A stretch of DNA of 64,000 bases, from the NCBI RefSeq assembly GCF_000715505.1, contig NZ_JHEH01000002.1:186001-250000 (forward strand), read 5' to 3'. Shown here in pieces: positions 14,943-29,721 of this stretch (positions are counted from its first letter, which is position 1; every line of letters begins with the position of its first letter). Made by a program: the position numbers and the translations under genes. A model generated the notes under the pieces. The model saw only the letters and a program-made list of their open reading frames with translations, ran no database searches and had not been told where the DNA came from. The DNA is from Thioclava dalianensis. GTDB taxonomy: Bacteria > Pseudomonadota > Alphaproteobacteria > Rhodobacterales > Rhodobacteraceae.

Positions 14943-15653
14943 ATGTCATTCGATCTTTTCCGGATATTCGAATCCGGAGGAACTTCTCTTGTCGAGGTTC
15001 CCTACACTGTCAAAAAACCGAAACAGTATTTTTACACACCCGTTGGCGGTGGCACGAAACGCTGTATAGATCTGGTTTTGATCGCGCTTTTTATTCCGCT
15101 TTTTCTGCCCCTGTTGGCGGGATTATGCCTATTGGTGAAATTAAGCGATAAAGGGCCGATTTTTTATGGCCATAAACGGATCGGATTTAATGGCCGAGAA
15201 TTCCGTTGCTGGAAATTCCGCACGATGGTGGTCGATGGCGACGCGGTTTTGGAGCGCCATTTGAAAGCCAATCCCCAAGCGCGCGCCATGTGGCTGCGTG
15301 AGCGCAAGCTGGACGATGATCCGCGCGTCACCGCGCTGGGGGTCGTGCTGCGGAAACTCAGCCTCGACGAGCTGCCGCAACTCTATAATGTACTGAGCGG
15401 CGAGATGAGCATTGTCGGTCCGCGCCCGGTCGTTCACGCCGAGCTGGCCAATTACTCGGGCTCCGTGAAGCACTATCTTCGCACCCGTCCCGGCGTGACC
15501 GGGTTGTGGCAGGTCTCGGGACGTTCGGACATGTCCTATCGTGATCGCGTCAAGCTGGACCGCTTCTATGCTTCGCGCTGGTCCAATATCCTCGATTTGT
15601 GGGTTCTCGCGCGCACTGTGCCTGCGGTCCTCATGAGCCGCGGCGCGCGCTGA
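14943..15653 (+). CDS. exoY: Undecaprenyl-phosphate sugar-1-phosphate transferase (ExoY-like)
   Basis: A 236-residue bacterial sugar transferase that primes exopolysaccharide repeat units on undecaprenyl phosphate at the inner membrane. One hydrophobic segment (residues about 41-65) precedes the cytoplasmic catalytic domain with CWKFRTMVVDGD, DELPQLYNVL, GEMSIVGPRP and RPGVTGLWQVSGRS. The length matches ExoY of succinoglycan synthesis. The ATG follows TAGGGAG. ExoF-like export protein follows 13 bases later. Acceptance of galactose versus another sugar is inferred from locus similarity. Confidence 0.88.
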   Translation: MSFDLFRIFESGGTSLVEVPYTVKKPKQYFYTPVGGGTKRCIDLVLIALFIPLFLPLLAGLCLLVKLSDKGPIFYGHKRIGFNGREFRCWKFRTMVVDGDAVLERHLKANPQARAMWLRERKLDDDPRVTALGVVLRKLSLDELPQLYNVLSGEMSIVGPRPVVHAELANYSGSVKHYLRTRPGVTGLWQVSGRSDMSYRDRVKLDRFYASRWSNILDLWVLARTVPAVLMSRGAR

Positions 15654-15666: not shown

Positions 15667-16854
15667 ATGAAACATCTTTGTCTTGCCCTCCTCGCCTCCG
15701 TGCTGTTCGCAGGCTCGGCGCTCTCTGCCACGATTGCCCCCGAGGACCAGCTGACGATCTCAATCGTCGATTGGGATTCAACCACCGGGCGCGTGCAGCC
15801 TTGGCAATCCATGCCCACCGCGTTCAGCGTCGACACTGATGGTGAGATATCCGTTCCATTTCTGGGCCTTATGCCCGTGGCCGGCATGTCCCCGGATGCA
15901 CTCGGGCAGACCATCGCGACGGGATTGTTGCGGCAACTGGCCCTCGCAACTCCGCCCTCTGTGACCGTGACGATCTCCCAGCGCCCGCCCGTTCTCGTGA
16001 CAGGCCTTGTGCGTGACAGTGGCCCGCAGGTCTATCAAGACGGGCTCACGGCGCGCATGGCGATGGCGATGGCGGGCGGCGTGCCGCTCTCGGGCCTGTC
16101 CGCCTCAGATCCGATGCGCACTCAGGCACAGGCGGTGGCCGATCTCAAAGGTTTGCGCCAAAGCGAAGACGAACTGGCGATGCGCGTCGCTCGCCTTCAG
16201 GCCGAGCGCACGGGCGCAGAGACAATCGAATTCCCGCCGCTACTGCTGAGCGGCGCACATGGCACGATGCTTCAGACGCAGGAGACGAACCTGCTGCAAC
16301 TCCATCAGGAGCAAACCAAGCGGTCGCTGACGCTGATCGCGGGGCGCATCAACAATCTCAACAGCGAGATCGACTCGCTGAACAAGAAATCCGAAGTGCT
16401 CGAAGAGCAACGTACGCTGGCCCAGAAGCAGCAAGACGCGATGACCCAGCTTGCGGATCGCGGCCTTGCCGTCAATTCCCGACAGTTTGATGCGCAGCGT
16501 GCCCTGTCGCTGATCGAGACCCAGAGCTTGGACGTTCAGACCTCTATTTTGCGGGCAAAACAAGATCTTGCGAAAGCCGAGGCTGACCGGCTGGAAGCCG
16601 TTGAAGGGCGCTCGGCGGACCTTTTGGGGCAGTTGCAGACGGCGCAGGCCAAACTCGCCGACACCCAGACCAAACGCGTATTGCAAGAGCAGCTCGTGGC
16701 GATGCTTGGTGCCGCGCAGGATCCCGATGCCTATGTGCATGTCACACTGCGTCGGCGTGGCGAGGCCAAGCCAATCGAGGCGGATCTCGACACCGTTCTC
16801 AAACCCGGTGACATCCTCACGATCGGCCTCGACCCGAAACAGGTCGCGGGCTGA
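15667..16854 (+). CDS. exoF: Polysaccharide export protein (ExoF-like)
   Basis: A 395-residue periplasmic/outer-membrane protein with a signal peptide (residues 1-20, ending SALSA). A polysaccharide-export (poly_export) domain begins at ATIAPEDQLTISIVDW and an SLBB-like segment follows (ISQRPPVLVTGLV). Residues about 155-330 are a long coiled coil (ESEVLEEQRTLAQKQQ-like heptads). This layout matches ExoF of succinoglycan export. It is coupled with exoY and ends 9 bases before the convergent glycosyltransferase stop. Confidence 0.83.
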   Translation: MKHLCLALLASVLFAGSALSATIAPEDQLTISIVDWDSTTGRVQPWQSMPTAFSVDTDGEISVPFLGLMPVAGMSPDALGQTIATGLLRQLALATPPSVTVTISQRPPVLVTGLVRDSGPQVYQDGLTARMAMAMAGGVPLSGLSASDPMRTQAQAVADLKGLRQSEDELAMRVARLQAERTGAETIEFPPLLLSGAHGTMLQTQETNLLQLHQEQTKRSLTLIAGRINNLNSEIDSLNKKSEVLEEQRTLAQKQQDAMTQLADRGLAVNSRQFDAQRALSLIETQSLDVQTSILRAKQDLAKAEADRLEAVEGRSADLLGQLQTAQAKLADTQTKRVLQEQLVAMLGAAQDPDAYVHVTLRRRGEAKPIEADLDTVLKPGDILTIGLDPKQVAG

Positions 16855-16862
16855 TTGGGCCC

Positions 16863-17837
16863 CTAACCGACCGGCAGCAGGTAGCGCCGCTCCACCACTT
16901 TGGGCTTGATCACAACGCGGATCTTGTCGCGCAAAACGCCCCGCGCGATGGGCATGAAATTCTGCGGCGGGGCGAGCGCGAACTGGATCGCCGCCCCAAA
17001 GCCATCCGCCCTCTTACGCTCTAGAAACGCGCTCAGCAGATAGCGATTGCGCAGGCTGCGGGCATGGGTCTCAAGGGCGCTGCGTGCCTGCGGCTCAAGG
17101 CCCGGAAGCGCAAGATGCGCCCGGGCAGCCGCCAAAAACCCTCCGAGATCATGGGTGCGATGTTGACCGCTGAGGCTATTGGCGCGCACCCGGGCGGCAT
17201 ATCCGACCCGCGCGCTGACCTTGAACCGCGCGCCCGCCGCAAGCATGCGGACATATAGGTCAAAATCCTCGCCCAATCGCAGCGCGGGATCGTATCCAAG
17301 CGCGTATTTTTCGATGAATGTCCGAGAAATCAAAGGCTTGAGAAAGCCCAACTCGCCGCGAGACACGCCCCGCCTTGGCAGGTTTCCGATCGCGAATTCC
17401 GCCAGACCCAGACCTGAAAGCGGCCCGTCCGAGGCGCTTGGCAGCTCATCGGGGGCGATCAGATCCGCGCGGCTCTCCGGCACAAAGACGATATTGTCGG
17501 CGATCATGTCCCAATCCGACTGCGCCAACAGCGCCGCGAAGCGCCCCGGCAGCAGGTAGTCATCCGCATCGAGGATCGCGAGGATCGGCGCGCGCGAGGC
17601 GGCGATTGCGAGATTGCGCGCGGCGGCGGGGCCGATATTGCTGTTCTGGCGCAGCACCGTGAGGCGCGCATCGCCCCCCGCCGCCGCGCGGGCGCATTCG
17701 CTCGTGTCATCGGTTGAAGCATCATCGACGACGAGCAGCTCGGCAAGCTCGGGCTGCGCAAGGGCCGAACGCACCGAATCGCCAATCGTGGCCGCCGCAT
17801 TATGCGCCGGGATGATCACACAGACAGTCGCGCTCAT
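16863..17837 (-). CDS. Family 2 glycosyltransferase (ExoO/ExoU-like), coupled to the lasso nucleotidyltransferase
   Basis: A 324-residue GT-A glycosyltransferase. It has CVIIPAHNAAATIGDSVRSA, VVDDASTDDT, AILDADDYLLPGR (DxD) and the later LGEDFDLYVRMLAAGARF block that is shared with the transferase at 33401-34621. The ATG at 17837 overlaps the nucleotidyltransferase stop by four bases and has AGGAGAGC upstream. It may add a sugar to the exopolysaccharide or, given the coupling, act on the lasso peptide; sequence alone does not decide. Confidence 0.8.
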   Translation of the reverse strand: MSATVCVIIPAHNAAATIGDSVRSALAQPELAELLVVDDASTDDTSECARAAAGGDARLTVLRQNSNIGPAAARNLAIAASRAPILAILDADDYLLPGRFAALLAQSDWDMIADNIVFVPESRADLIAPDELPSASDGPLSGLGLAEFAIGNLPRRGVSRGELGFLKPLISRTFIEKYALGYDPALRLGEDFDLYVRMLAAGARFKVSARVGYAARVRANSLSGQHRTHDLGGFLAAARAHLALPGLEPQARSALETHARSLRNRYLLSAFLERKRADGFGAAIQFALAPPQNFMPIARGVLRDKIRVVIKPKVVERRYLLPVG

Positions 17838-18967
17838 GGCTTGCTCTCCTGTTGTCTCAACGCGCCGGCATTCCACGAGCTGATCGCCTTATGTGACAGC
17901 TCGGACAGCCCGGCTCGCAGGCTTTCGCGGAGGAACCGGGGCAATCCGGGACCACACAGCGCCTTGAGGAAATGCCGACGGCGCGGCCAGCACAAGCCCT
18001 CGATCCAAGGGGTGCAGAGCATACGGCGCAAATCCGCCTCTGAAACCTCAGGAAAAATCGCCTGTGACAGCGCGGGCGTGCGCGGCAGCTCAGGGAAAAC
18101 ACTGTGCACGGCCCGCATCGCCAGCGCCAAGGTGCCCGCCATCCCGTTCTGCGCCGCGTGACCCGCAAGGGCAGTGTGATCGGCAGGCGTCAGGCTGTGC
18201 AACGCGGCGCGCATATCGGTGACATTGCCAAGCGCGGGCTCACGCGCCAGCATTGCCTTGCTGATCGAGATCGCGGCCAGCAAACACCGATCCAGCGGTG
18301 AGGGCACCTGAAAAGTCATCTCCTCGAACACAAGCTCGGAGCGCCGCTGCAAGAATCCCTCAAGATTATAGGGTCTTGGCAGGCCCGCCTGCTGAAGCCC
18401 GTGATGCAGATCGACGACGATGCCGCTCTCCGGGTCGCGCAGATGGATCTCGCTGAGAAACCGCGTCCACCACAGCGACATCGCGCGTTCGGTCTCGTCA
18501 TATCCCAGCTCGCGCAACAGCTCTGCGGCCTGTTTGCGATGGGCCGGGTGCACGAGGATATCGATATCGCCCGAGGGCTTCTGAAGATAGCTGCCATAAA
18601 GCGCTATCTGCTGGAGCGGCCCTTTGAAATGAACATGCGGGATCTCTGCGCGGGCCAGACAGCGTGACACGGCCGCACCGCTCACGATCCCACGGCGATT
18701 GAGCGCCAAGATCCGCAGGCGCACCTGATCGACTTTCGGCGCGAGCCCCGCACAGCCCGGCGGCAACGCCTCAGCGCGTGCGGGCAGAAAGGCCAGCATC
18801 TTGTTGAGCCGCGCGACATCGAAGAGGCGCTGCGGGTCAAGCCCCGGATGCGTCTTTCCCGCATCAACGCCGCCAAAAACCTGGGACGCCAAGGCCGTCA
18901 GATACCGAACCTCAGTCTCACACTCATAGGCGCGCACGTTTTTGAATTGTTCGGGCGTGTAAGGCAA
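17834..18967 (-). CDS. Nucleotidyltransferase-family protein (NTP_transf_5), lasso-associated
   Basis: A 377-residue protein with the nucleotidyltransferase core: HVHFKGPLQQIALYGSYLQK, then SGDIDILVH with the D134/D136 metal pair, and VVDLHHGL further on. Proteins of this family (PF14907) recur in lasso peptide clusters that also carry an HPr-kinase-like gene; in the pseudomycoidin system the homologue is reported to glycosylate the phosphorylated C-terminus. It is divergent from the lasso precursor with a 331-bp promoter gap and coupled to the downstream glycosyltransferase. Confidence 0.78.
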   Translation of the reverse strand: MPYTPEQFKNVRAYECETEVRYLTALASQVFGGVDAGKTHPGLDPQRLFDVARLNKMLAFLPARAEALPPGCAGLAPKVDQVRLRILALNRRGIVSGAAVSRCLARAEIPHVHFKGPLQQIALYGSYLQKPSGDIDILVHPAHRKQAAELLRELGYDETERAMSLWWTRFLSEIHLRDPESGIVVDLHHGLQQAGLPRPYNLEGFLQRRSELVFEEMTFQVPSPLDRCLLAAISISKAMLAREPALGNVTDMRAALHSLTPADHTALAGHAAQNGMAGTLALAMRAVHSVFPELPRTPALSQAIFPEVSEADLRRMLCTPWIEGLCWPRRRHFLKALCGPGLPRFLRESLRAGLSELSHKAISSWNAGALRQQESKP

Positions 18968-19298
18968 TTGTTCGCTCCCACGAAGCTGGTCGTCTCAGGT
19001 CACCATAAATCGATGAAATTTGATTCGGAATAAGCGATTCGTTTTGCCCCTGTATGTGAATTATTTAAGTCATATTTTTTTCAAATGTGCCCGTTTTTTA
19101 AACAGGTATTTTTTTGAATCTCCCAATGGTGCGAAAATAAAAACAATCTCGTTACCAATGCAATTTAGGGTTGTAAAATCGGGTAAGGTATTCCTGAGAA
19201 TCTTTTGGTCACGTTGACAGATCTCCCCCAGTCTCGGAAGCATTTATCTTGGCAAAAGCCAACGACTTGAATCTTAAATCCTGAAGGGGGAATTTCAG
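18968..19298. promoter_or_regulatory. AT-rich divergent promoter region of the lasso cluster
   Basis: This 331-bp gap between the nucleotidyltransferase and the precursor gene is markedly more AT-rich than its surroundings, with several T-tracts between 19050 and 19115. A TTGACA hexamer is at 19214-19219, but no matching -10 box occurs at normal spacing, so the exact promoter is uncertain. No gene is seen. Confidence 0.45.
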
Positions 19299-19439
19299 AT
19301 GCAAAAGAAAACCTACTCCACCCCGATGCTGCAGAAGCACGGTAAGCTTGAAGCCCGTACCCATGGCGCTTCGACCGGTTCGTCGCTGGACGCGGCTTTC
19401 CCGTCCGGGACCGACTTCGGCGATCTCACCTTCTCGTAA
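19299..19439 (+). CDS. Lasso peptide precursor (A gene)
   Basis: A 46-residue peptide. The leader carries Y6, P9, L11, G15 and T21, an exact fit to the Y-x2-P-x-L-x3-G-x5-T motif that lasso RRE proteins recognise, with the conserved Thr at position -2 of the cleavage site after H22. The predicted core begins GASTGSSLD, giving a nine-residue macrolactam between the Gly1 amine and the Asp9 side chain, then a 15-residue tail AAFPSGTDFGDLTFS with bulky F and P residues and a C-terminal serine. AGGGGG lies upstream of the ATG. The dedicated B1, B2, C, kinase and exporter genes follow. Confidence 0.93.
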   Translation: MQKKTYSTPMLQKHGKLEARTHGASTGSSLDAAFPSGTDFGDLTFS

Positions 19440-19458
19440 GGTCTGAGAAATGACTGTT

Positions 19459-19480
19459 CGAGGCGGCCTCTGCCGCCTCG
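19459..19480 (+). terminator. Stem-loop between the lasso precursor and B1
   Basis: CGAGGCGGC (19459-19467) pairs perfectly with GCCGCCTCG (19472-19480) around a CTCT loop, 20 bases after the precursor stop. There is no U-tract, so it is better read as an attenuator or 3'-end stabiliser that raises precursor mRNA over the processing genes. Confidence 0.6.
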
Positions 19481-19506
19481 GGCAGATGCCATGGGGAAAT
19501 TCTAAA

Positions 19507-19788
19507 ATGCTCGATCAAGATATTCAGGGCTACCGGCCCGCGAAGGACTGTGTCGTGTGTTCCTACGGCGATGGACTTGCCGTGCTCGACATGCGCTCGA
19601 ATCAATATTTCAGCCTTGATGCCGTAGGCGCTGTCGTCTGGGAGGTCATCGCGCGCGCGGGCAATCGCGACGAGATGATCACGGCTGTGACAGAGGCGTA
19701 TGATGTCACGCCCGAAGTGTGTGCCGCCGATATCGCTGCCTTGCTCTCAGAGCTACACGCCCAGAATCTGATTGAGCCGGTCCAGTGA
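19507..19788 (+). CDS. Lasso peptide B1 protein (PqqD-like RiPP recognition element)
   Basis: A 93-residue PqqD-like winged-helix protein. It has the strand pattern VVCSYGDGLAVLDMRSNQYF, then LDAVGAVVWEVI and the helical end VCAADIAALLSELHAQNLI, all typical of discrete lasso RREs. It would bind the leader and deliver it to B2 and C. The ATG at 19507 is chosen because the longer frame from 19450 would run through the stem-loop and encode atypical sequence. Its stop overlaps the B2 GTG start by four bases. Confidence 0.9.
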   Translation: MLDQDIQGYRPAKDCVVCSYGDGLAVLDMRSNQYFSLDAVGAVVWEVIARAGNRDEMITAVTEAYDVTPEVCAADIAALLSELHAQNLIEPVQ

Positions 19789-20267
19789 TTTTCGACCTCG
19801 CGCGCGGACGAACCGTTGCGCATAAGCTGCAACTGGGACTGGTCGCGCTTGCAACGGTCCTGCGCGTACGTATCGCGCTGAGCCTGAACCGCGCCGATAT
19901 CTGGCGGGCCCGCAATGCGGCACTCTGTGCGCAGGTCCCGTCCGGCGCGCCGCAAAACTGCGATCACCATCTGCGCGAAATTGCATGGTCGGTTGGTGCC
20001 GCCGCGCGCCTCGTGCCGGTGGCAAGCTGTCTGACGCAGGCGCTTGCCGGGCAATATTTGCTCGCGCAGCGCGGCGTTGCCAGTGACCTGCGGCTCTCGC
20101 TGCCCGCCGGGCAAGGCGATGCGTTTCGCCCCCATGCCTGGCTGCTGCATGAGGGACAGATCGTGCTCGGAGGCTCTGCCGAGATGTTGCGCACCCACCA
20201 ATTCTTCGTGCCCCCGGACCGCAGCCGCCCGGCAGAGGGCCGCACCCTGAGGGCCGTTTCGAAATGA
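19785..20267 (+). CDS. Lasso peptide B2 leader peptidase (transglutaminase-like)
   Basis: A 160-residue cysteine protease of the McjB C-terminal type that removes the leader. The nucleophile is C82 in LVPVASCLTQALA and the general base H117 in RPHAWLLHEG. The expected acidic third residue is not obvious, as in several lasso B2 proteins. Start is GTG, overlapping the B1 stop (GTGA); the stop overlaps the C gene ATG. Split B1/B2 as here is common outside enterobacterial microcin J25-type clusters. Confidence 0.88.
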   Translation: MIFDLARGRTVAHKLQLGLVALATVLRVRIALSLNRADIWRARNAALCAQVPSGAPQNCDHHLREIAWSVGAAARLVPVASCLTQALAGQYLLAQRGVASDLRLSLPAGQGDAFRPHAWLLHEGQIVLGGSAEMLRTHQFFVPPDRSRPAEGRTLRAVSK

Positions 20268-22153
20268 GCGGCTTTGCGATCTGCCAGATGCTGTCAGGCA
20301 ATCCCGCGCAGCTTCCAAGCCTGTTGCAGGCGGTCACCGCCGCGATGGCAGATCGCGGCCCCGATGGCATCGCAAAGAAGACCGACGGCAAGGTTGCGAT
20401 GAGCCACCTCTATCTCGACAGTGCCGGGCAAGGGCCCTCCGGTCTGGGCCCGTGGCAGGCCGAGGATCACGGCACGCTGCTGACGGGCGATCTTGCAATC
20501 ATCAACGGACGGGAGCTCGCGCAGGAAGCGGGCGCGGCCTATCGCGGGGATGCGGAGGCGATCTTGCAGGCCTATGCCCGCTGGGGCCTCGACGCCATCG
20601 CGCGGATCGAGGGCGAGTTTGCCTTCGGTCTGTGGGATCCGCGCAGCGCACGGCTGATCGTTGTGCGCGACCGGTTCGGTGTGAAACCCGTGGCGTATCG
20701 GGTCGATCCTGATCTGATCTGCGTGGCCAGCGCGCCCTACCCGCTCGCGCAGCTCGGATCTCAGCCCGCCCGCCCTGACGCCGCTTGGATCGCGGAATAC
20801 CTGACCGACCGAACCTTCGACACGCAGCGGACCGCTTATGCGGATGTGCAGCGCCTGCCACCCGGCCATATGATGATCGTCGAGCGCGGGAGCGTTCTGA
20901 TGCGGCAATGGTGGCAGCTTGAGGCCAGCGAGCTGTCCGCGCGCGATGCCCCCGAGGCTCTGGCCGAGGCGCTGCGCCGTGCCGTTACCCGCAGAATGCG
21001 GGGCCGCACCGCCTGCCTGCTGAGCGGCGGGCTGGATTCCGGCTCGATCACGCGGCTGGCGGCAGATCACGCGGCGCGCCCAGTCCCGGCCTATTCGCTG
21101 CGCTTTCCGGGGATGCCGGAGATGGATGAGGGGGTCTATATCGACGCGCTGCGGGAGACGGGCAATATCGAGGGGATCGACCTGCCCGCGCTGATCGGCG
21201 GCGCGTTCGATGACCCCGACACGCTTCTCGACGAGCATCATCAGCCTGTTCTGGGCCTTGGCCATGTCACCACGCGCCAATTGCACCGCAGGCTGGCTCA
21301 GGATGGGATGCGCACGGTGCTCGACGGGCATGGCGGCGACGAGGTGATCGGCATGGGCACATGGCATCTCGATACGCTGGCGCGCAACGGGAACTGGGCG
21401 GCGCTTTATCTCGCCTGCCGCGCCCATGCCCGCTTTAGCGGCGATCCGCGCGGCCCCCGTGGGCTGATGCTGGAATTGCTCGGCCATCACGCCCCCCGCC
21501 CCTTGCGCGGCGCGTTGCGGCGTCTGGGACGCGCCGAGCGGCCCGACACGCTGAGCTGGCGCGCGCTGGTCGATCCCGATCTGGCCGAGCGCAGCGCTAT
21601 TGTTGCGAATATCCAAACCTCCCTGCGCGACACCCACGCCCATCTGCCAGAGCATCAACGCTTTCACGCGGCGCTGCTTTCCAATGCGGGCACGGCGGAT
21701 GCGTTCGAGTTCTTCGACCGCGCGGCCTCTGCGCAGGGGATCGAGCTGCGCTTCCCGTTCTATGACCGCGAGGTCGTAGCCATCGCTTTGGGTCAGCCGG
21801 ACGCGGCGAAGATCGCGCAAGGCCGCACCCGGGCGCCCTTGCGCGCGGCGATGCAGGGCATTTTGCCCGATCGCGTGCGGCTGCGCCCGGACAAGACCGA
21901 CTTCACCCCCAATCTGATGCGCGGTCTGCGCGCGGATCCGCACGGCCATCTGAGCCGCTACCAAGGCGCAATGCCTGAGGTTCTTGAGGGCTATGTCGCC
22001 CCCGATGCGCTCAGCGCGCTGGCCGCGCGACTGACGCAAGATCCATCCGATACGACCGCGATGCGCAGGCTGTGGCGCGTGTTCTGGCTTGAGCAATGGC
22101 TCATGCGCCTGAGCGCAACTCGACAAACACTGGCATATGAGGGACGGGCATGA
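20264..22153 (+). CDS. Lasso peptide C protein (asparagine synthetase-like macrolactam synthetase)
   Basis: A 629-residue asparagine-synthetase B homologue. The N-terminal glutaminase-like domain shows RGPDGIAKK and EGEFAFGLWDPRS but has no Cys2, as expected when glutamine is not hydrolysed. The ATP-binding P-loop SGGLDS is at residues 254-259, and DGHGGDEVIGMGTW follows. It would adenylate the core Asp9 side chain and close the ring onto the Gly1 amine. Coupled by four-base overlaps to B2 and to the kinase. Confidence 0.92.
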   Translation: MSGFAICQMLSGNPAQLPSLLQAVTAAMADRGPDGIAKKTDGKVAMSHLYLDSAGQGPSGLGPWQAEDHGTLLTGDLAIINGRELAQEAGAAYRGDAEAILQAYARWGLDAIARIEGEFAFGLWDPRSARLIVVRDRFGVKPVAYRVDPDLICVASAPYPLAQLGSQPARPDAAWIAEYLTDRTFDTQRTAYADVQRLPPGHMMIVERGSVLMRQWWQLEASELSARDAPEALAEALRRAVTRRMRGRTACLLSGGLDSGSITRLAADHAARPVPAYSLRFPGMPEMDEGVYIDALRETGNIEGIDLPALIGGAFDDPDTLLDEHHQPVLGLGHVTTRQLHRRLAQDGMRTVLDGHGGDEVIGMGTWHLDTLARNGNWAALYLACRAHARFSGDPRGPRGLMLELLGHHAPRPLRGALRRLGRAERPDTLSWRALVDPDLAERSAIVANIQTSLRDTHAHLPEHQRFHAALLSNAGTADAFEFFDRAASAQGIELRFPFYDREVVAIALGQPDAAKIAQGRTRAPLRAAMQGILPDRVRLRPDKTDFTPNLMRGLRADPHGHLSRYQGAMPEVLEGYVAPDALSALAARLTQDPSDTTAMRRLWRVFWLEQWLMRLSATRQTLAYEGRA

Positions 22154-23148
22154 GTAATTTTGGTCAGGTAGCTGCGCAATTGGAACGGCACGCAGGGACC
22201 GCTCGAGGCCCCATGCATCGCTACCAAAGCTACGGGCTTTTGTTCCTGTCCGATATCGAACTGCCCGAGCTTTCGCCCGCCGGTCCCGACGCGCTGCCCG
22301 AGGACGGCTCGGTGCGCATTCACCGCCGCGCGATTGAGCTGCCCGCAGGGGTGCGCGATCTGCCGACATGGACGGCCTTTGGCCCTGAAGGCGTGCGGTT
22401 CTGGTGGCAGACCGTGGGCGCATTCGAGGTCTGCGATGGCGGGCGCACGATCCTGGTCGATCCGGCCCCCGATGTGAGCGACGATTTGATCGCCTTTCCG
22501 TTGCTTGGCCCGGTGCTCTCAGAATGCCTGCGCCGCTGCGGCTATTTCGTGCTCCATGCCAGCGCTGTCGATCTTGACGGTCAGGGCATCGTGCTGATGG
22601 CCGACAAGGGCACGGGAAAGTCCTCCAGCAGTGCCGCATTGCTGCGGGCGGGCGCGCGCCTGCTGGCCGATGATCTGGTCGCCATCGATCCTGCGACGGG
22701 GTTGATCTGGCCGGGCTTCGGGCAGGTCAAGCTGGCCCAGGAAAACCTCTCGCATCAATTGCCCGGTCAGGACTGGCAGGCCCGTCCGCAGGTCCATGAA
22801 CAGATCGACAAGGTGCGCGTGATGGTGCCCGAATTGCTTGCGCGCGCACCGATCCCCGCAGCCCGGCTCTGCCTGCTCTCGCGCGGACGCGGCGAGATCC
22901 CGGAGCTAAGCCCGCTTGCCCTGCAGGATCGGATCTCCGCCGTTCTCGATTTCTCCTACGCGGTCCGCTTCGGCAAGGACGGGATGACCGGGGATCTGGC
23001 CGCACGCCACTTTCAGGGTGCCGTCATGCTGGCCCGCAGCGTCCCTCTGCGCCGGCTCGAGCTGCCCTGCGGCATCGACCGGCTCGACACGCTTGCACCT
23101 GCCTTGCGGCGCGATCTGGACACCCAATCGGAAGATCGCAGCGAATGA
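22150..23148 (+). CDS. HPr kinase-like lasso peptide kinase
   Basis: A 332-residue protein related to HPr kinase/phosphorylase. The conserved block reads FVLHASAVDLDGQGIVLMAD, then the Walker A KGTGKSS with K157 and S158, and LLADDLVAIDP supplies the acidic pair. In paeninodin-type clusters the equivalent enzyme (PadeK, ThcoK) phosphorylates the C-terminal serine of the precursor; the precursor here ends in Ser. It overlaps the C gene and exporter by ATGA on both sides. Function in this cluster is inferred from family and context. Confidence 0.85.
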   Translation: MSNFGQVAAQLERHAGTARGPMHRYQSYGLLFLSDIELPELSPAGPDALPEDGSVRIHRRAIELPAGVRDLPTWTAFGPEGVRFWWQTVGAFEVCDGGRTILVDPAPDVSDDLIAFPLLGPVLSECLRRCGYFVLHASAVDLDGQGIVLMADKGTGKSSSSAALLRAGARLLADDLVAIDPATGLIWPGFGQVKLAQENLSHQLPGQDWQARPQVHEQIDKVRVMVPELLARAPIPAARLCLLSRGRGEIPELSPLALQDRISAVLDFSYAVRFGKDGMTGDLAARHFQGAVMLARSVPLRRLELPCGIDRLDTLAPALRRDLDTQSEDRSE

Positions 23149-25022
23149 CACGCGCCCCCGCCCCGCCTCAACCCGAACCGCTTGCCCCGGGCGAGGCGCT
23201 TAGAAACGCGCTCAGCCTGATCCGCGAGCTGCGTGCCACTGGGGCGGGGCGGTTCTGGATCGCGCTGGTTTTGCTGGTTCTGGGCAGCCTGACCGAAGGG
23301 CTCTCGGTGCTGCTTCTGCTGCCGGTCCTGCATCTTTTATCGCAATCCGATGGCGGGCTGGGTCGGATCGAGCTGGGGCAGCACCATATTGGCGCGCTCA
23401 ACCTGCCGGACTGGAGCATCGGGCTACCGACCTTACTGCTGATCTTCGTCGGGCTTGCGGTGTTTCAGATGCTCTTCAATCGCGGCAAGAGCGTCTATCT
23501 CAGCGATGTGCTACTGGATTTCACCAATCGTCAGCGGCTGTCGCTGTTCCGCGCGCTCTCCAAGGCGCGCTGGGACCGGGTCAGCCGGATGAGCGGGGCC
23601 GAGCTGGAGCATGCGCTCACCGGCGAGATCGAGCGGATCTACATGTGCGCCTTCTACGTGCTCTCGATCCTGCAGGCGATGATCGGTCTTGCGATCTACC
23701 TCGCGGTCTGCCTTGCGATTTCGTGGCCGATGACGCTTATCACGCTGGGCTTCGGGACGGTGGCGCTGCTGGTGATGCGCCCCTTTCGGCGCCGGGCCGC
23801 GCGTTTCGGCCATCGGCTGCAAAGCCGCCGGATGGAGCAATTCCGCACCGTCGCGGATTTCTTGGGTGGCCTGAAAAGCGCACGCGCCTCGAACCGGGAG
23901 GCGCGCCACCTCGATGCTTTCGCAGCCTCGCTCGATCAGACCAAACACGACACCCGCGAGTTCACACGCTCCAACGCGACCGGATCGGGCCTGTTTCAGC
24001 TGTCTCTGACGACCGGGGCCGCCGCTTTCATCTTTCTCGCGATCACCTGGGCTGGGCTGGATCTGACGCGTATCGTGGCCCTTTTGCTTGTCGCGATGCG
24101 CATCGCGCCGCGCTTTTTGGGCCTTCAGGGACAGGCCCAGCAATTGCTGGTCTCGCTGCCCGCATGGCGCCACGTTCGCACGCTGTCGCGCAAATTGACC
24201 GCAGCGCAGGACGACTCTGCAGGCGAGGCCACACATGTGCCGCCGCTGGCGCGCTCGATCCAGCTTCAAGACGTGTCTTACAGCTACGAGGATAGCGCGC
24301 GCGCCGCACTGGACGGGCTGTCGCTCACCATCCGCGCAGGCGAAGTCACGGCCCTGATCGGCGCCTCCGGTTCGGGGAAAAGCACGGTGGCGGATCTGTT
24401 GATGGGGCTGATCCGCGCGCAATCCGGCACACTGAGCGTCGACGGCACCGTGCTGGACGCCAAAGCCCTGCGCGGCTGGCGCGAACAGACCGCCTATGTC
24501 GCGCAGGAGAGCTTCTTGATCCACGGCTCTGTGCGCGCCAATCTCGAAGGCGGCGCACATGGGCAGCTCGCAGATACAGAGATCTGGCACGCGCTTGAGA
24601 TGGCCAATGCTGATGCTTTCGTTCGGGAACTGCCCGAGGGGCTTGAAACGCGGATCGGCGATCGCGGCGTTTTGCTATCAGGCGGTCAGCGGCAGCGGAT
24701 TGCGCTGGCGGCGGCCTTCCTGCGCAAACCGGCCTTTCTGGTGCTCGATGAGGCCACCAGCGCGCTGGACTGGCAGGCGCAGGACTGTATCGCGCATTCG
24801 GTCAAACGGATCGCGCGAAGCGGCACCACCGTGGTCACCATCGCGCATCGCCCCTCGATGGTGCGCTTTGCAGATCACATCTATGCTTTGAAGGACGGCC
24901 GCGTAGTCGAGGACGGCCGCGGGCCGGAGCTGATGGCGCGCCCGGACGGCACGTTCCGCCTGATGCTGCAGCATGAAGGCTATGAGAATGTGGTTCCGCT
25001 CAAAACCGGCGAGAGCCACTGA
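23145..25022 (+). CDS. ABC transporter for lasso peptide export (D protein)
   Basis: A 625-residue half-transporter with the membrane domain first (about six hydrophobic segments between residues 35 and 320) and the ATPase second: Walker A GASGSGKST around K412, LLSGGQRQR signature, VLDEATSALDW Walker B and a TIAHRP switch histidine. No C39 peptidase domain is present, consistent with a separate B2 protease. It is last in the coupled lasso operon and gives export and self-protection. No lasso isopeptidase gene is present, as usual for clusters with an exporter. Confidence 0.9.
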   Translation: MTRAPAPPQPEPLAPGEALRNALSLIRELRATGAGRFWIALVLLVLGSLTEGLSVLLLLPVLHLLSQSDGGLGRIELGQHHIGALNLPDWSIGLPTLLLIFVGLAVFQMLFNRGKSVYLSDVLLDFTNRQRLSLFRALSKARWDRVSRMSGAELEHALTGEIERIYMCAFYVLSILQAMIGLAIYLAVCLAISWPMTLITLGFGTVALLVMRPFRRRAARFGHRLQSRRMEQFRTVADFLGGLKSARASNREARHLDAFAASLDQTKHDTREFTRSNATGSGLFQLSLTTGAAAFIFLAITWAGLDLTRIVALLLVAMRIAPRFLGLQGQAQQLLVSLPAWRHVRTLSRKLTAAQDDSAGEATHVPPLARSIQLQDVSYSYEDSARAALDGLSLTIRAGEVTALIGASGSGKSTVADLLMGLIRAQSGTLSVDGTVLDAKALRGWREQTAYVAQESFLIHGSVRANLEGGAHGQLADTEIWHALEMANADAFVRELPEGLETRIGDRGVLLSGGQRQRIALAAAFLRKPAFLVLDEATSALDWQAQDCIAHSVKRIARSGTTVVTIAHRPSMVRFADHIYALKDGRVVEDGRGPELMARPDGTFRLMLQHEGYENVVPLKTGESH

Positions 25023-25025: not shown

Positions 25026-25283
25026 TTAATGGGCCTCGTCATGCCGGGTCTTGATGACACTGCCCGAGCTCACCTTGCGCCGCACCGGATCGACCTCCTC
25101 GCGGGAGCGCTGTTCGCCCCGAGCCATCACGGCAATCCATCCAAGATAGAGGAATTGCGCCAGAACGAGCGCCGCGAGGGCCAATGTAACGATGGTCCAA
25201 AAGCCGAACCCTGCCAGCGCGCAGACCACGCAAAGCACAGCGATAAACGCCAAAAGGCCTCTGATGAAGGATGAAAAATTCAC
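25026..25283 (-). CDS. Small two-helix membrane protein, ExoX-like exopolysaccharide regulator candidate
   Basis: An 85-residue protein with two hydrophobic helices (about residues 8-30 and 33-52) and a charged cytoplasmic-looking tail (ARGEQRSREEVDPVRRK). Size, two-helix form and position in an exoY/exoP locus resemble ExoX/PsiA-type repressors that act on ExoY, but no diagnostic motif can be confirmed by eye. It stands alone, three bases after the lasso exporter stop on the opposite strand. Confidence 0.5.
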   Translation of the reverse strand: MNFSSFIRGLLAFIAVLCVVCALAGFGFWTIVTLALAALVLAQFLYLGWIAVMARGEQRSREEVDPVRRKVSSGSVIKTRHDEAH

Positions 25284-25391: not shown

Positions 25392-27788
25392 TCAGCTGTG
25401 TCCGGTCTGCAAATAATCTCCGTATTCTTCCAGGTAGTTAACGCTATCTTCACTGTCGACGTAGTCACGCAGCTGCGTCAAATCGACCTTGCTCAGAACG
25501 ACGCCGAGCAGTTTTTCCGGGATCTTGGGATGCGAGCTGATCAATGATCTCAGCAGCGCGCGCGTGGTTTTCCCCCATTCTGCGACGAACAAAAGCTGGT
25601 CCAGCTCTCCGATCACGATGCGCACATCGACGACCGGCCCAAGCGGCGGTAGATCGAGCAGGACATAGTCATACTCCCCGCGCAGCTCGTGCAGGAAGCG
25701 CCGGAACCCCTCGCCGCCAAGCATTTCGCTGGCCTGCACGAATCCCTCCGGTGTCGGACAGGACAGGAACTCGACGCCGGTATCGCCAATTTCCTTCGTG
25801 CTCGAACGCCAGCTTGCCACCCCGGTCAACACCTCAAGCAGACCCGCCCCCGTGGTCTGCCCCAGAACACGGCTTAGCCCCTGACGATGCGCATCGGCAT
25901 CGATCAGCAAGACGCTCGCGCCGGTCGATGCGATCACCGCGGCCAGATTGAGCGATGTCGAGGTCTTGCCTTCCGCAGGCCGCGCCGAGGTGATCCCTAG
26001 GATGCGGGTGTCTGTAGAGCTGTCGGACAGACGCATCGCAAGGCGAATATTGCGCAGCGTCTCGGTATAGAGCGAACGCGGATGCGACAGTGCATAGATC
26101 GCGGAGCGTCCGCTGATGCGTGCCAGTTGACGCGACGCCTCGCCCGGTCTGGACAGGGGAACTTGCCCCCGCGCAGGCGTTTGCGGCATCCCTTTGACAA
26201 GGCCGGGGCGGTCGGTCGTGCGATAGATCGGCAGGTAGCCAAGGAACGGCACCCCGACGCTCTCGGCCAGCTGATCGCCCGTACGCAGCCAGCGGTCGCG
26301 CCATTCGCCGATCGCGGCCAGCACAAGCCCCATCATCAGCCCCACAAGGATCGTGAAGGCCAAGACGAAACGCGCACGCGGCCCGGCTGCGGCTTTGGGC
26401 GGCTCGGCCCGAGACAGCATCCGCACATTCGACACCGGGAAACTCTTTTGCTGATCGATCTGCTGAAACTTCGCAAGGAAGGTTTGATACAGCGTCGAGA
26501 GCGTCTGGGCGCGTTGTTCCAGCGCACGCAGCTGCACCTGCGCCGAGCCAGAGCTGGCATCCGTGTCTACCGCCCCCTGAACACTATCGCGCAGCGCCTG
26601 CACGCGGGCCTCGGACAGGCGTTCCTCGCCCTTAGCCTGTGCCAATAGCTGTTTGATCTCGCCGTAAAGCTGGGTCGCACTTTCTTGCAGACGCGCCTTA
26701 TAGGGCGCGAGTTGCGGATCGTCGGGGCCAAGCTGGGCCTTGATCCGGTCAAAGTTGGCAATCGCGTTGGACAGGCTGCGCTGCAACCCGTCAAACTTGG
26801 CAGAGCCATCCGGCGAGAGCCCGCCCGGCACGCCTTTCATCAACGCGTCCGGCCCCGCATCGACCGCCGCCTGCAAGGCCACGACCTGCGCCTTGGCCCG
26901 CGCCGCATCGCTGACGGCATTCGACAGATCGGAGTTCAGATTGACGACGGAATCCTGCGAAATCGTGGTGTCACGGGTCGTCACGAGCCCATTTTGCACG
27001 CGGAAAGTTTCGGCGGCTTCGGCGGCCTTCTGGGCATCCTGCTGCAGATTGCTCAACCGACCCTGCATCCATTCCGTCATCCGCTCCGTCGCGCTGTAAT
27101 TGGCGTTGAGCACGTCCGAAATATAGACATCGGCAAAAGCATTCACGACATTGGCCGCAAGCACCGGATCGTTCGATTTGAACGAGATCGAAAAGGCAGA
27201 GCTGCGCCCGATCCGACCCACGCGCACGTTTTGCTGCAAGTAGCGGGCCACCGCCTCTTGCTGGCGCTCGGTGATCTGCGCGGGCGTGAGCGGGGTTCTG
27301 GGCGCGCTTCCGGTTGTCGCCTCGGGCGGGGCCCCGCGCAGCCAGCCGATGGGCTTTTTGATCGCCCCCATCACCGTGCCCATCACCTTTGACAGCAGCG
27401 ATTGCGGCGGGTTGGTGAAGGACGGATTGTCTTGCAGGTTCAACTGCGCCGCCACCCGATTGGCCACGTCATCGGATGTAATGACCAGCCGGGCGCTCTC
27501 GAGCGCGGACTCATTCGTGGAGAGATCTTCGGATTGCGAGACCTGCTGGATCGTGCGGCTGATATTGCTATCGAGCAGGATCGACGACCCCGCGTAGTAA
27601 TAGCGCGGCGTCGTCGCGAGATAGACGATCCCCAGCACGATCCAGACCGCCACACAGACAAAGATCACACGCCGCCTACGGCGCAGCGCCGAGATCAGAC
27701 GCGACAGATCAATCGGATCGGGTTCATGGCGGGTGGGTGGTGTCATGGAATTCGGACTATCCCCGATCTGAAATCGCAATTTTGTCAT
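25392..27788 (-). CDS. exoP: Chain-length determinant / tyrosine autokinase (ExoP/Wzc-like)
   Basis: A 798-residue inner-membrane polysaccharide co-polymerase. A Wzz domain with an N-terminal transmembrane helix (VIFVCVAVWIVLGIVYLA) comes first, a long periplasmic coiled coil (about residues 200-430) next, a second helix (FVLAFTILVGLMMGLVLAA), and a cytoplasmic BY-kinase domain with Walker A ARPAEGKTSTS and VLLIDADAHRQG. The tyrosine-rich tail ends YLEEYGDYLQTGHS. It controls polymer length and export by tyrosine phosphorylation. The ATG at 27788 overlaps the upstream transferase stop; an alternative is 27746. Confidence 0.88.
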   Translation of the reverse strand: MTKLRFQIGDSPNSMTPPTRHEPDPIDLSRLISALRRRRRVIFVCVAVWIVLGIVYLATTPRYYYAGSSILLDSNISRTIQQVSQSEDLSTNESALESARLVITSDDVANRVAAQLNLQDNPSFTNPPQSLLSKVMGTVMGAIKKPIGWLRGAPPEATTGSAPRTPLTPAQITERQQEAVARYLQQNVRVGRIGRSSAFSISFKSNDPVLAANVVNAFADVYISDVLNANYSATERMTEWMQGRLSNLQQDAQKAAEAAETFRVQNGLVTTRDTTISQDSVVNLNSDLSNAVSDAARAKAQVVALQAAVDAGPDALMKGVPGGLSPDGSAKFDGLQRSLSNAIANFDRIKAQLGPDDPQLAPYKARLQESATQLYGEIKQLLAQAKGEERLSEARVQALRDSVQGAVDTDASSGSAQVQLRALEQRAQTLSTLYQTFLAKFQQIDQQKSFPVSNVRMLSRAEPPKAAAGPRARFVLAFTILVGLMMGLVLAAIGEWRDRWLRTGDQLAESVGVPFLGYLPIYRTTDRPGLVKGMPQTPARGQVPLSRPGEASRQLARISGRSAIYALSHPRSLYTETLRNIRLAMRLSDSSTDTRILGITSARPAEGKTSTSLNLAAVIASTGASVLLIDADAHRQGLSRVLGQTTGAGLLEVLTGVASWRSSTKEIGDTGVEFLSCPTPEGFVQASEMLGGEGFRRFLHELRGEYDYVLLDLPPLGPVVDVRIVIGELDQLLFVAEWGKTTRALLRSLISSHPKIPEKLLGVVLSKVDLTQLRDYVDSEDSVNYLEEYGDYLQTGHS

Positions 27789-28744
27789 GTCCGCGCCCCT
27801 TCAGTCTCGGGCGCGTCACCAGAGGCACCATAGAGAGTTATTTCCTCATTGCCCAAACATGCAGAGATCACGCCGATATGGAGCGCCCCGCGTGTCAGCG
27901 CCGTATTCCGCCCCAGCGGCGCGCCCAGATGGCGCACGTAAAGCCCACCGCAGGCCAGCGCCTTGGCACCTGCCACCAGTGCATGTTTCAGCCGCGCACC
28001 GCCGCCCGCGCCCGCGCAAAGCAGGCGTCCATGGGTCTGCCCCATCCGGTAGCGGCGTGCCAAAAGCCAGCTCAGCCGCGCGCGCTCGGGCGGGACCGTT
28101 TCATGTACGACAGCCGCATCGGTGTAGAAAATTTCGCCGCCCCGCTTACGGATCTGATCGAAGAAGACCGTATCCTCACCGCCGCTGCGCCCACGCGACA
28201 GATCGAAGCGCAGATCGCGCAGCGCGTCATCCTCAAGCGAAATCAACGTGTTGCAGGTGTACCCGGTCTGCGCACGGCTCTGCGCATCGCAGCGCGCGAC
28301 AGTATCATGCACCGCGCCGCGCACCATCCATGGCGGCGCATCTTTTGCGTAATGCGCGCGCACCGGGCCGATCACCGCGGCAGAGCCCCGCGCCTGCCAG
28401 CCGTGCCACAACGCGACCAACCATCCCGGCTCGACCGTCTCATCATCATCGATGAAGACCAGCGCCTTGGCCCCACGTGCTCGCGCTGCATCGAGGATCG
28501 CATTGCGCGCAATTGAGATGTTTTGCGAGGGCGCATGAAGATAGGTGCCGGGAAATGGCAGCCCTGCGAGCACCGCCTCGATCTCCGCGCGCGCCTTGGG
28601 CTCGATATCATTATCCGCGACGATCACTGAGAGCGCGGCCTCCGATGGCTGCTCGATCGCAGCCAGAGACTGCAGCGTCGCCGCGATATGGGCGCGCCGA
28701 AAGGTGCAGATGCCGATGATGATGTCGCAGGCCTCGGAGGTCAT
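27785..28744 (-). CDS. Family 2 glycosyltransferase (ExoM-like)
   Basis: A 319-residue GT-A transferase with CDIIIGICTFRRAHIAATLQSL, VIVADNDIEPKA, ISIARNAILDAARARG and FIDDDETVEPGWL (DDD metal site). The second half has GYTCNTLISL and SGGEDTVFFDQIRKRG. The pattern resembles ExoM of succinoglycan, a beta-1,4 glucosyltransferase. The ATG at 28744 overlaps the upstream stop by one base (TGATG); the longer frame would extend into the previous gene. Sugar specificity is unproven. Confidence 0.82.
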   Translation of the reverse strand: MTSEACDIIIGICTFRRAHIAATLQSLAAIEQPSEAALSVIVADNDIEPKARAEIEAVLAGLPFPGTYLHAPSQNISIARNAILDAARARGAKALVFIDDDETVEPGWLVALWHGWQARGSAAVIGPVRAHYAKDAPPWMVRGAVHDTVARCDAQSRAQTGYTCNTLISLEDDALRDLRFDLSRGRSGGEDTVFFDQIRKRGGEIFYTDAAVVHETVPPERARLSWLLARRYRMGQTHGRLLCAGAGGGARLKHALVAGAKALACGGLYVRHLGAPLGRNTALTRGALHIGVISACLGNEEITLYGASGDAPETEGART

Positions 28745-29721
28745 CAGATGCCCCGGCTCGGGGTGAACCGCTGGCGCAGGACTTGCACCCAATAGCCCGC
28801 CGACCACGAGACCTGCATCAGCCCCGCGAGAAAGCCGGTGGCAAGGCTGCGATGGTCCTTATGCGCAATCGCGAGTGACAGCCCCGCCACGAGACACCCA
28901 AGAACCCAGACCAGAAGCGGCCAGATAAAGATCGCGCTGAACGGCACGAAAACCGTCAGCAGCAAGGCGGGCACAAGCGCCATCACCAGACATTGGCGTG
29001 CCCCCGGGCGGGCGTGGTGCTTGGCGAAATTGCGTGCCCGCCCCTGCCCGAAAAAGAAATACTGGCGCATCAGCGGCTTGATGGATTGGCGCGGATGGTA
29101 CTCCATCTCGGTCTTTGCGGTCAGCCAGATCGAATGCCCGGCAAGGCGCAGCCGGTAATCCAGCTCGGCATCCTCATTATGGCTGAAGCTCGGGTCGTAG
29201 CCGCCGACGATATTGAAGACCGGCAGGCGCATGAGCGCATGGTGCCCGTGATCGACCCAACGCCCGTCGCTTGCGTTGCGATGGGCCGCGCTGCCATTCC
29301 CAAAGCGCGAATTCTGCGCCTCCGCGATCAGCTTTTGCAGCGGTGTTTTGCCCACCGCGCGCATCGAGACGACAACGCTGTCGGCAGATTGCGCCTCGGC
29401 CTCGGCCACCAGAATGTCGCAGAAATCCGCTGGATAATCGGCATGGGCATCGATGCGGATCAGCAGTTCGCAATCATTGCCATATTGCGCGACAGCCCGG
29501 TTGATCCCCGCCGATTGATAGCGCTCGGGATTGTCCAGAAGATGCAGCCACGGGCGAGCGCGTTGCATTCGCTTGACCGTCGCCCGGGTGCTGTCTTGAG
29601 AGCCACCATCGACCACCACGACCAGCGCAGGATGGCGCCCCACAAACCCGCGCAGCCCATGGATGGTCTGTGCGATATGTTCGGCTTCATTGAGCGTCGG
29701 AATGACAACCAGCGTTTTCAA
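28744..29721 (-). CDS. Family 2 glycosyltransferase with C-terminal membrane helices (ExoA-like)
   Basis: A 325-residue transferase: LVVIPTLNEAEHIAQTI, VVDGGSQDSTR, RIDAHADYPADFC, and VDHGHHALMRLPVFNIVGGYD, a block characteristic of ExoA. HNEDAELDYRLRLAG holds the acceptor-side acidic pair. Three hydrophobic segments follow near residues 235-300. ExoA adds the second sugar of the succinoglycan unit by a beta-1,3 linkage; specificity here is by homology. It sits 21 bases after the ExoL-like gene and is coupled to the ExoM-like gene. Confidence 0.85.
   Translation of the reverse strand: MKTLVVIPTLNEAEHIAQTIHGLRGFVGRHPALVVVVDGGSQDSTRATVKRMQRARPWLHLLDNPERYQSAGINRAVAQYGNDCELLIRIDAHADYPADFCDILVAEAEAQSADSVVVSMRAVGKTPLQKLIAEAQNSRFGNGSAAHRNASDGRWVDHGHHALMRLPVFNIVGGYDPSFSHNEDAELDYRLRLAGHSIWLTAKTEMEYHPRQSIKPLMRQYFFFGQGRARNFAKHHARPGARQCLVMALVPALLLTVFVPFSAIFIWPLLVWVLGCLVAGLSLAIAHKDHRSLATGFLAGLMQVSWSAGYWVQVLRQRFTPSRGI

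What the first reader, a model, noticed from the sequence alone, without database searches (positions are those of the whole stretch)
16863..25022. Complete lasso peptide gene cluster inside an exopolysaccharide locus
The sequence shows, in order, a precursor, B1 (RRE), B2 (protease), C (asparagine synthetase-like), an HPr-kinase-like gene and an ABC exporter, each pair from B1 on joined by a 4-bp overlap. Divergently there is a nucleotidyltransferase-family gene coupled to a glycosyltransferase. It splits exoY-exoF from the remaining exo genes. The set A-B1-B2-C-K-D plus N is known from phosphorylated lasso peptides; its placement in a Rhodobacterales succinoglycan-type locus seems undescribed to my knowledge.
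Basis: partly seen in the sequence, partly recalled or inferred. Interest (0 to 1): 0.95.

Follow-up and report, generated by a model that had tools for sequence, protein, structure and literature searches.

The report
Lasso peptide wired into exopolysaccharide locus
A complete gene set for a knotted, probably phosphorylated and sugar-decorated peptide sits inside a slime-sugar gene cluster, and relatives in other alphaproteobacteria keep the two together, which suggests that the peptide works with the bacterium's slime layer rather than as a stand-alone antibiotic.

Summary
The lasso cluster is real: A (46 aa), B1, B2, C, K and D, with N and a glycosyltransferase divergent, and the 4-bp overlaps as described. 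The genus is Thioclava. Catalytic residues of K, B2, C and N are invariant in the relatives aligned.

It is no chance insertion. A search with the kinase returned 80 loci (best of 142) from 11 named genera and some bins. In 79 of 79 testable loci exopolysaccharide genes lie within 5.4 kb of K, in several gene orders. Other alphaproteobacterial lasso loci have a polysaccharide marker within 10 kb in 1 of 39 cases. The precursor is conserved: of 40 distinct cores, 39 have Gly1, 39 Asp9, 38 a terminal Ser.

Best reading: a phosphorylated, probably glycosylated class II lasso peptide that belongs functionally to an exopolysaccharide pathway. The chemistry follows paeninodin and pseudomycoidin. Paeninodin-like clusters in capsule loci of Bacilli, role unknown, are in print (PMC13381572, 2026). 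My searches listed no such report for Proteobacteria. The role in the matrix is inferred, not shown.

The parts
19299..19439 (+). lasso precursor A, 46 aa; leader 1-22 (YSTPML..HG..EART-H), core 23-46 GASTGSSLDAAFPSGTDFGDLTFS, predicted Gly1-Asp9 ring and C-terminal Ser
19507..19788 (+). B1, discrete PqqD-like leader-binding protein (RRE)
   Evidence: (PF05402 3.2e-16)
19785..20267 (+). B2, transglutaminase-like leader peptidase; Cys82 and His117 invariant in 24 of 24 aligned
   Evidence: (NF033537 over cut-off)
20264..22153 (+). C, asparagine-synthetase-like macrolactam synthetase; SGGLDS motif invariant in 19 of 19 aligned
22150..23148 (+). K, HPr-kinase-like; His136, Lys157, Asp174, Asp175 invariant in 9 of 9 (A1) and in at least 97% of 84
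23145..25022 (+). D, ABC exporter (HepA/MsbA-like)
17834..18967 (-). N, PF14907 nucleotidyltransferase with Asp134, Asp136, Asp186 invariant in 23 of 23; divergent from A
16863..17837 (-). GT2-family glycosyltransferase, 4-bp overlap with N
14943..15653 (+). exoY-like undecaprenyl-phosphate sugar phosphotransferase (PF02397)
15667..16854 (+). exoF-like outer-membrane polysaccharide export protein (PF02563)
25026..25283 (-). small membrane protein, weak DUF2244 match (below cut-off)
25392..27788 (-). exoP-like Wzz/co-polymerase with ATPase domain
27785..30918 (-). three glycosyltransferase-like genes of the exo locus (the one at 29743-30918 below the Pfam cut-off)
31128..32441 (-). Wzy-type polymerase / O-antigen-ligase family (PF04932)
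32402..33199 (-). GH16 glycan hydrolase (exoK-like)

Best explanation
The genes make a class II lasso peptide that is part of an exopolysaccharide system. Steps: (1) B1 binds the leader. (2) K phosphorylates the C-terminal Ser of the precursor. (3) B2 cuts after Thr-His and C closes the Gly1-Asp9 ring, giving a 24-residue lasso. (4) N, perhaps with the coupled glycosyltransferase, adds sugar to the phosphoserine. (5) D exports the product. The sugars and the site of action are those of the exopolysaccharide made by the same locus, so the peptide most likely acts in or on the matrix (binding, anchoring, capping or tuning the polymer) rather than as a stand-alone antibiotic. Shown here: the gene set, the invariant catalytic residues, the conserved precursor, and the tight, repeated linkage to exopolysaccharide genes. 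Taken from published relatives: steps 2 and 4 (PadeK, PsmK, PsmN). Inferred: the role in the matrix.
For: In the genus, 5 of 16 genomes carry C and 6 of 16 carry exoF; the five lasso genomes are all among the six, and lasso and exo lie together although C is only 40-49% identical to the window's. Of 80 K loci (best of 142 relatives), 79 of 79 testable have an exoY, exoF or exoP reading frame within 5,332 bp of that of K, median 2,714; gene orders differ between genera while B1-B2-C-K-D stays fixed wherever it is complete. Control: of 39 other B2 loci from 385 class genomes, 1 lies within 10 kb and 3 within 20 kb of PF02397 or PF02563. 78 precursors, 40 distinct cores: Gly1 39, Asp9 39, Thr-Phe at -3/-2 40, last residue Ser 38 or Thr 2. 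Purifying selection in 55 distinct Mesorhizobium-type DNAs (pN/pS 0.03 leader, 0.25 core). Distances of C, K, D and N correlate with those of exo proteins at r 0.67-0.94 over 10-17 loci. Catalytic residues invariant. Published kinase and N chemistry: PMC9266682 (passages). Independent parallel in Bacilli: PMC13381572.
Against: Nothing is known of expression or product. Exopolysaccharide loci of the same type can lack the lasso genes: G305 in the same genus has exoY, exoF, exoP and even a close homologue of the N-coupled glycosyltransferase, but no lasso genes, so the glycosyltransferase may serve the polymer and the polymer does not need the peptide. In the family sample, 48 of 56 genomes with an exoP match have no K above 300 bits. 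One locus (L055, Paracoccus) keeps K without A, B1, B2, C and D. The glycosyltransferase follows exoY only weakly (r 0.56, 9 loci). Physical linkage and co-divergence would also follow from joint transfer of an island without a shared function.
Confidence: 0.6

Rival explanations
1. An ordinary lasso bacteriocin or signal that only travels with a polysaccharide island; the linkage is transfer history or shared regulation (made when biofilm is made), with no action on the polymer.
For: D is an ABC exporter of the kind that also gives lasso immunity (recalled); the locus is patchy within the genus, 5 of 16; exo loci without lasso exist (G305).
Against: Linkage is kept through different gene orders and two orders of bacteria; the core is conserved over the 11 genera instead of diversifying; other lasso clusters of the class seldom show the linkage.
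Confidence: 0.25
2. The lasso peptide is covalently joined to the exopolysaccharide: the glycosylated phosphoserine is a primer, cap or anchor of the polymer.
For: C-terminal Thr-Phe-Ser nearly invariant; N overlaps the glycosyltransferase in the window and 68 of 70 loci with both keep them within 200 bases; the Mesorhizobium ciceri locus annotated (L096) has exoY, exoF, a Wzy-type enzyme, GH16, one GT and a UDP-sugar dehydrogenase around the lasso genes.
Against: The Wzy-type enzyme matches PF04932 only, no protein-ligase model; the glycosyltransferase also occurs in a lasso-free locus; I know of no precedent for a lasso-linked polymer.
Confidence: 0.2
3. The peptide is a regulator of polymer export or chain length (for example by binding exoP or exoF) and is not attached to the polymer.
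For: Among the genes modelled, exoY (59) or exoP (16) is the next one after D in 75 of 79 loci with D (my count); C, K, D and N distances correlate with exoP distances at r 0.82-0.93.
Against: exoP was found in 17 of 80 loci and in none of the Mesorhizobium rows within the stretches fetched; export by D would place the peptide outside.
Confidence: 0.15
4. Not a lasso system: C is an amidotransferase of the polysaccharide pathway like those of exosortase loci.
For: C also matches the XrtA/PEP-CTERM amidotransferase model, 157 bits against a cut-off of 817.
Against: Precursor, B1 and B2 with lasso features co-occur, C scores higher against a lasso cyclase model (334 bits, itself below the cut-off of 525), and Gly1/Asp9 spacing is kept in 39 of 40 distinct cores.
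Confidence: 0.04

Closest known systems
Pseudomycoidin cluster (Bacillus pseudomycoides; PsmK, PsmN)
   Same: lasso set with a kinase K and nucleotidyltransferase-family N; C-terminal Ser phosphorylated, then hexosylated (PMC9266682, passages)
   Different: Bacillota; here N is coupled to a GT2 gene and the set sits in an exoY/exoF/exoP locus of Alphaproteobacteria with a conserved -TFS core
Paeninodin (PadeK) and SyanA (SyanK, Sphingobium yanoikuyae)
   Same: His-Lys-Asp-Asp kinase motif and C-terminal Ser as substrate; both present here
   Different: the review passages seen do not describe a polysaccharide locus; I did not compare the Syan sequences or their context
Paeninodin-like lasso clusters in capsular polysaccharide loci of Bacilli, and LPP peptides (PMC13381572, 2026)
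   Same: lasso genes with K, N and an MsbA-like exporter among polysaccharide genes; role unknown, biofilm raised by the authors as a speculation
   Different: other phylum; there a group with a second RRE and a SipW-like peptidase; no mention of Proteobacteria, Pseudomonadota or rhizobia
Succinoglycan-type exo loci
   Same: exoY, exoF, exoP, Wzy, GH16 (exoK-like) and glycosyltransferases
   Different: carries the lasso cassette; the polymer structure is unknown

Membership tests
lasso peptide biosynthetic cluster | precursor with YxxPxL-type leader and Thr at the penultimate leader position | tested here: met
   leader models just below cut-off
lasso peptide biosynthetic cluster | core residue 1 with free amine and Asp/Glu at 7-9 | tested here: met
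   Gly1 and Asp9 in the window and 39 of 40 distinct cores; exception L056
lasso peptide biosynthetic cluster | RRE, transglutaminase-like peptidase with Cys/His, asparagine-synthetase-like cyclase | tested here: met
   of the curated lasso models only B2's cut-off is passed
lasso peptide biosynthetic cluster | threaded, ring-closed product | not testable with these tools
   needs mass spectrometry or NMR
paeninodin/pseudomycoidin-type (phosphorylated) lasso | HprK-like kinase with His-Lys-Asp-Asp | tested here: met
   H136, K157, D174, D175 invariant; by sequence its only solved relatives with clear E-values are HPr kinases
paeninodin/pseudomycoidin-type (phosphorylated) lasso | C-terminal Ser acceptor | tested here: met
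   Ser in 38 and Thr in 2 of 40 distinct cores
pseudomycoidin-type (glycosylated) | nucleotidyltransferase-family N | tested here: met
   PF14907 in 23 of 23; three Asp invariant
pseudomycoidin-type (glycosylated) | hexose added to the phosphoserine | not testable with these tools
   needs expression and mass spectrometry
LPP (linear polyphosphorylated peptides) | SipW-like peptidase and no macrolactam cyclase | tested here: not met
   C and B2 present, no signal peptidase among the ten proteins scanned
Wzx/Wzy exopolysaccharide locus | initiating transferase, Wzy, co-polymerase, export protein | tested here: met
Wzx/Wzy exopolysaccharide locus | flippase in the locus | tested here: inconclusive
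   within about 2-4 kb of exoF in G297, G298, G303, G305 and G307, but on another contig in the window's genome

The most novel reading that the evidence does not exclude
A lasso peptide is a covalent building part of a bacterial exopolysaccharide: its phosphorylated C-terminal Ser is glycosylated by N and the coupled glycosyltransferase and serves as a cap, primer or surface anchor of the polymer, a knotted-peptide glycoconjugate kept by Alphaproteobacteria of two orders (including 59 Mesorhizobium-type precursors here) and, by parallel, in Bacilli.
Probability: 0.2. Interest if true: 0.92.

Novelty: new variant of a known kind. Interest (0 to 1): 0.72.

Why it matters
The role of paeninodin-type lasso peptides is stated to be unknown (PMC13381572). 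A family with a conserved core, kept next to exopolysaccharide genes in Rhodobacterales and in Mesorhizobium, gives culturable hosts in which a matrix or symbiosis role can be tested directly. Together with the Bacilli report it suggests that one use of lasso peptides is in building or tuning the extracellular matrix, not in killing.

Tried and rejected
Rejected: insertion of a foreign cassette into an intact exo locus. In relatives the cassette neighbours different exo genes, and the lasso-free locus G305 has other genes in that slot (a glycosyltransferase-like gene, an aldo/keto reductase and a GMC-type oxidoreductase, by my reading of the translations). Rejected: D as the polymer flippase. 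A Wzx-type flippase lies near exoY both in four lasso-bearing Thioclava and in the lasso-free G305. Rejected: C as a polysaccharide amidotransferase. Led nowhere: solved relatives of N by sequence (chance-level matches only); Rfam over 14000-26000 found only a tRNA; the promoter and terminator scan of 18900-19560 was at chance level. A weaker hint: among the other B2 loci, those with a weak K match lie within 35 kb of a polysaccharide marker in 8 of 22 cases, those without K in 1 of 17.

Limits: in the control, 23 of the 39 places have no marker on their contig at all, some because the contig is short. The exoP profile A2 was built from lasso-bearing loci, so the family-level exoP counts favour them. 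The scan kept 80 of 142 relatives, so 62 were not seen. Most of the 80 are Mesorhizobium and not independent. Distances run between stop-to-stop reading frames. Correlated distances do not separate shared function from joint inheritance. Papers: PMC9266682, PMC13352647, PMC11676352, PMC9723273 and PMC9332814 were seen as passages only; PMC13381572 as section 6 and passages; all others as listings.

The same for Proteobacteria in PMC13381572. Three listed papers that hold both subjects were looked into; none links lasso and polysaccharide genes in the passages shown.
Full report
What is there. The window lies in a Thioclava genome: the same-genus genome G298 carries a 42,154-base contig of the same length as the Thioclava indica record found, and T. 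indica is Rhodobacterales, Paracoccaceae. The reported genes are present as described. B1, B2, C, K and D overlap by 4 bp each, and so do N and the glycosyltransferase on the other strand. The precursor is MQKKTYSTPMLQKHGKLEARTH-GASTGSSLDAAFPSGTDFGDLTFS. It has the lasso leader pattern with Thr at the penultimate leader position, Gly at core position 1, Asp at core position 9 and Ser at the end. There is no Cys in the core, so it would be class II. The genome has one match to this C. Around it are exoY and exoF upstream, and exoP, three glycosyltransferase-like genes, a Wzy-type gene and a GH16 hydrolase downstream.

First sign that this is more than a visitor. In the genus, 5 of 16 genomes have C. 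exoF has a match in 6 of 16. exoP has a match in 8 of 16, strong (over 700 bits) in the same 6 and weak (about 110 bits) in two others. The five lasso genomes are all among these six, and in each C lies near exoF, although C is only 40-49% identical to the window's C. The sixth, G305, has the exo locus without lasso genes. In the other four lasso genomes (L035-L038; precursors) the order is exoY, exoF, then glycosyltransferase-N facing A-B1-B2-C-K-D; in three of them a Wzy-type gene, GH16 and another glycosyltransferase lie between exoF and the N block.

Family and class samples. In 295 genomes of the family, 18 match the K profile; K scores above 300 bits in 8 and at most 157 in the others. 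All 8 have an exoP match, out of 56 genomes that do; in the 7 where both lie on one contig the gap is under 9 kb, and G147 has them on separate contigs. The exoP profile was built from lasso-bearing loci, so this count leans in favour. In 385 genomes of the class only the window's K exceeds 300 bits, the next being 189: in these samples the family is discrete.

Relatives with names. A pattern from the K alignment (A1) was scanned over the GTDB species genomes: 142 relatives, of which the best 80 were kept. They come from 11 named genera (Thioclava, Palleronia, Salipiger, Paracoccus, Cognatishimia, Pseudaestuariivita, Falsirhodobacter, Defluviimonas, Luteovulum, Salinarimonas, Mesorhizobium) and some bins; most are Mesorhizobium. 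Salinarimonas and Mesorhizobium are Hyphomicrobiales. Profiles built from the window and L035-L044 were run on all reading frames. Found in the 80: A 78, B1 78, B2 77, C 78, D 79, N 75, exoY 73, exoF 68, exoP 17. Incomplete rows are short contigs or stretches (L067, L088, L103), two Paracoccus loci without N in the stretch fetched (L060, L108) and L055. exoY, exoF or exoP lies within 5,332 bp of K, median 2,714, in 79 of 79; L067 is a whole 6.8 kb contig without an exo hit and was not testable.

Gene order. The cassette B1-B2-C-K-D is constant where complete. Its neighbours are not. In Mesorhizobium-type loci it runs GH16, GT, N, then the cassette, then exoY and exoF (57 of 80 in two variants differing in the direction of the Wzy-type gene). 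In L051, L118, L053, L124 and others D faces exoP. In Paracoccus loci such as L054 and L058 exoY lies upstream of B1 and N is elsewhere in the locus. Linkage that survives such rearrangement is hard to explain by one old insertion.

Control. Of 385 class genomes, 33 have a lasso B2 (NF033537), 40 places in all. For the 39 places other than the window, a PF02397 or PF02563 gene lies within 10 kb in 1, within 20 kb in 3 and within 35 kb in 9. In 23 of the 39 no such gene is on the same contig, partly because contigs are short. Closeness to polysaccharide genes is therefore not a general trait of lasso clusters in the class, though K-bearing ones lean that way (8 of 22 within 35 kb, against 1 of 17 without K).

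The precursor. Of 78 precursors, 50 are distinct and 40 cores are distinct. Gly1 occurs in 39, Asp9 in 39, Thr-Phe before the last residue in 40, and the last residue is Ser in 38 and Thr in 2. The odd core is L056. Among 59 Mesorhizobium-type precursors (55 distinct DNAs), pN/pS is 0.03 for the leader and 0.25 for the core. This is a conserved peptide, not one under diversifying selection.

Enzymes. K keeps His136, Lys157, Asp174 and Asp175, which I equate with the His-Lys-Asp-Asp motif needed in PadeK-type kinases (PMC9266682, passages). B2 keeps Cys82 and His117 in 24 of 24. C keeps SGGLDS in 19 of 19. N belongs to PF14907 in 23 of 23, keeps Asp134, Asp136 and Asp186 and gives a confident AlphaFold model (mean pLDDT 94), but has no solved relative by sequence. 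The assignment of the three Asp residues to a nucleotidyltransferase active site is from recalled knowledge of that superfamily. The glycosyltransferase is within 200 bases of N in 68 of the 70 loci where both were found, but a close homologue (446 bits) also lies in the lasso-free locus of G305, so it may belong to the polymer pathway.

Co-inheritance. Distances of C, K, D and N against exo proteins over 10-17 non-Mesorhizobium loci correlate at r 0.67-0.94, like those within the lasso set (C-K 0.90) and within the exo set (0.83-0.84); the glycosyltransferase correlates at 0.80 with C and only 0.56 with exoY. This shows joint inheritance; by itself it does not show joint function.

Mechanism. 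Published work shows that homologous kinases phosphorylate the C-terminal Ser of the precursor and that PsmN adds one or two hexoses to the phosphoserine, with the exact role of PsmN still open (PMC9266682, passages). I apply this here by homology and by the conserved Ser and active sites. In G305 D is missing together with the rest of the cassette while a Wzx-type flippase remains near exoY, so D most likely exports the peptide and not the polymer. That the product acts in the matrix is inferred from the conserved linkage and the conserved core.

What is known. A paper of May 2026 (PMC13381572; section 6 read in full, passages of sections 7, 11, 12 and 18) reports paeninodin-like lasso clusters embedded in capsular polysaccharide loci of Bacilli. 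It describes a related linear family with K, N and an MsbA-like exporter, a synchronous rise of one lasso gene, one such linear-peptide gene and an exopolysaccharide gene in stationary phase, and says that the roles are unknown and that a part in biofilm is yet to be tested. It does not contain proteobacteri-, Pseudomonadota or rhizobi-. A 2026 review of interlocked peptides does not contain 'polysaccharide'. Searches for lasso peptides with exopolysaccharide, Mesorhizobium, succinoglycan, Paracoccus/Rhodobacter or capsular polysaccharide listed no report of this family. Genome papers on Cereibacter and Erythrobacter list lasso clusters and exopolysaccharide genes separately in the passages shown. 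Most subscription papers are not in the library, including the paeninodin and pseudomycoidin papers.

Verdict. The biosynthesis is a new member of a known kind. The conserved exopolysaccharide-linked family in Alphaproteobacteria, with its -TFS core and N-coupled glycosyltransferase, is a new variant, and it makes the open question of what phosphorylated lasso peptides do directly testable.

Noticed in passing
L055:9959-10933: A Paracoccus locus keeps an intact K between exoY and exoP with no A, B1, B2, C or D in the stretch; either a remnant or a sign that K has a role of its own.
   Followed up: partly
L049:9697-15643: In the lasso-free exo locus of G305 the slot holds a glycosyltransferase-like gene, an aldo/keto reductase and a GMC-type oxidoreductase (read from translations), yet a close homologue of the N-coupled glycosyltransferase remains.
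   Followed up: partly
L056, precursor upstream of B1: Cognatishimia activa has an odd core (starts Ala, Leu at position 9, ends TFT) with lower-scoring N and D; ring size unclear.
   Followed up: no
window 25026-25283 (-): Small membrane protein between D and exoP with a sub-threshold DUF2244 match; a small membrane-like ORF also lies beside exoP in L055 (11100-11324).
   Followed up: no
L046 (G132 contig C114) and L134 (G576 contig C20): More distant HprK-type lasso-like clusters also have an exoP-like gene about 5-7 kb away, so the polysaccharide link may extend beyond this family.
   Followed up: no
G000 contig C8:108718-109590: The best Wzx-type flippase match of the window's genome is on another contig, while the five other exoF-bearing Thioclava genomes have one near exoY.
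   Followed up: no
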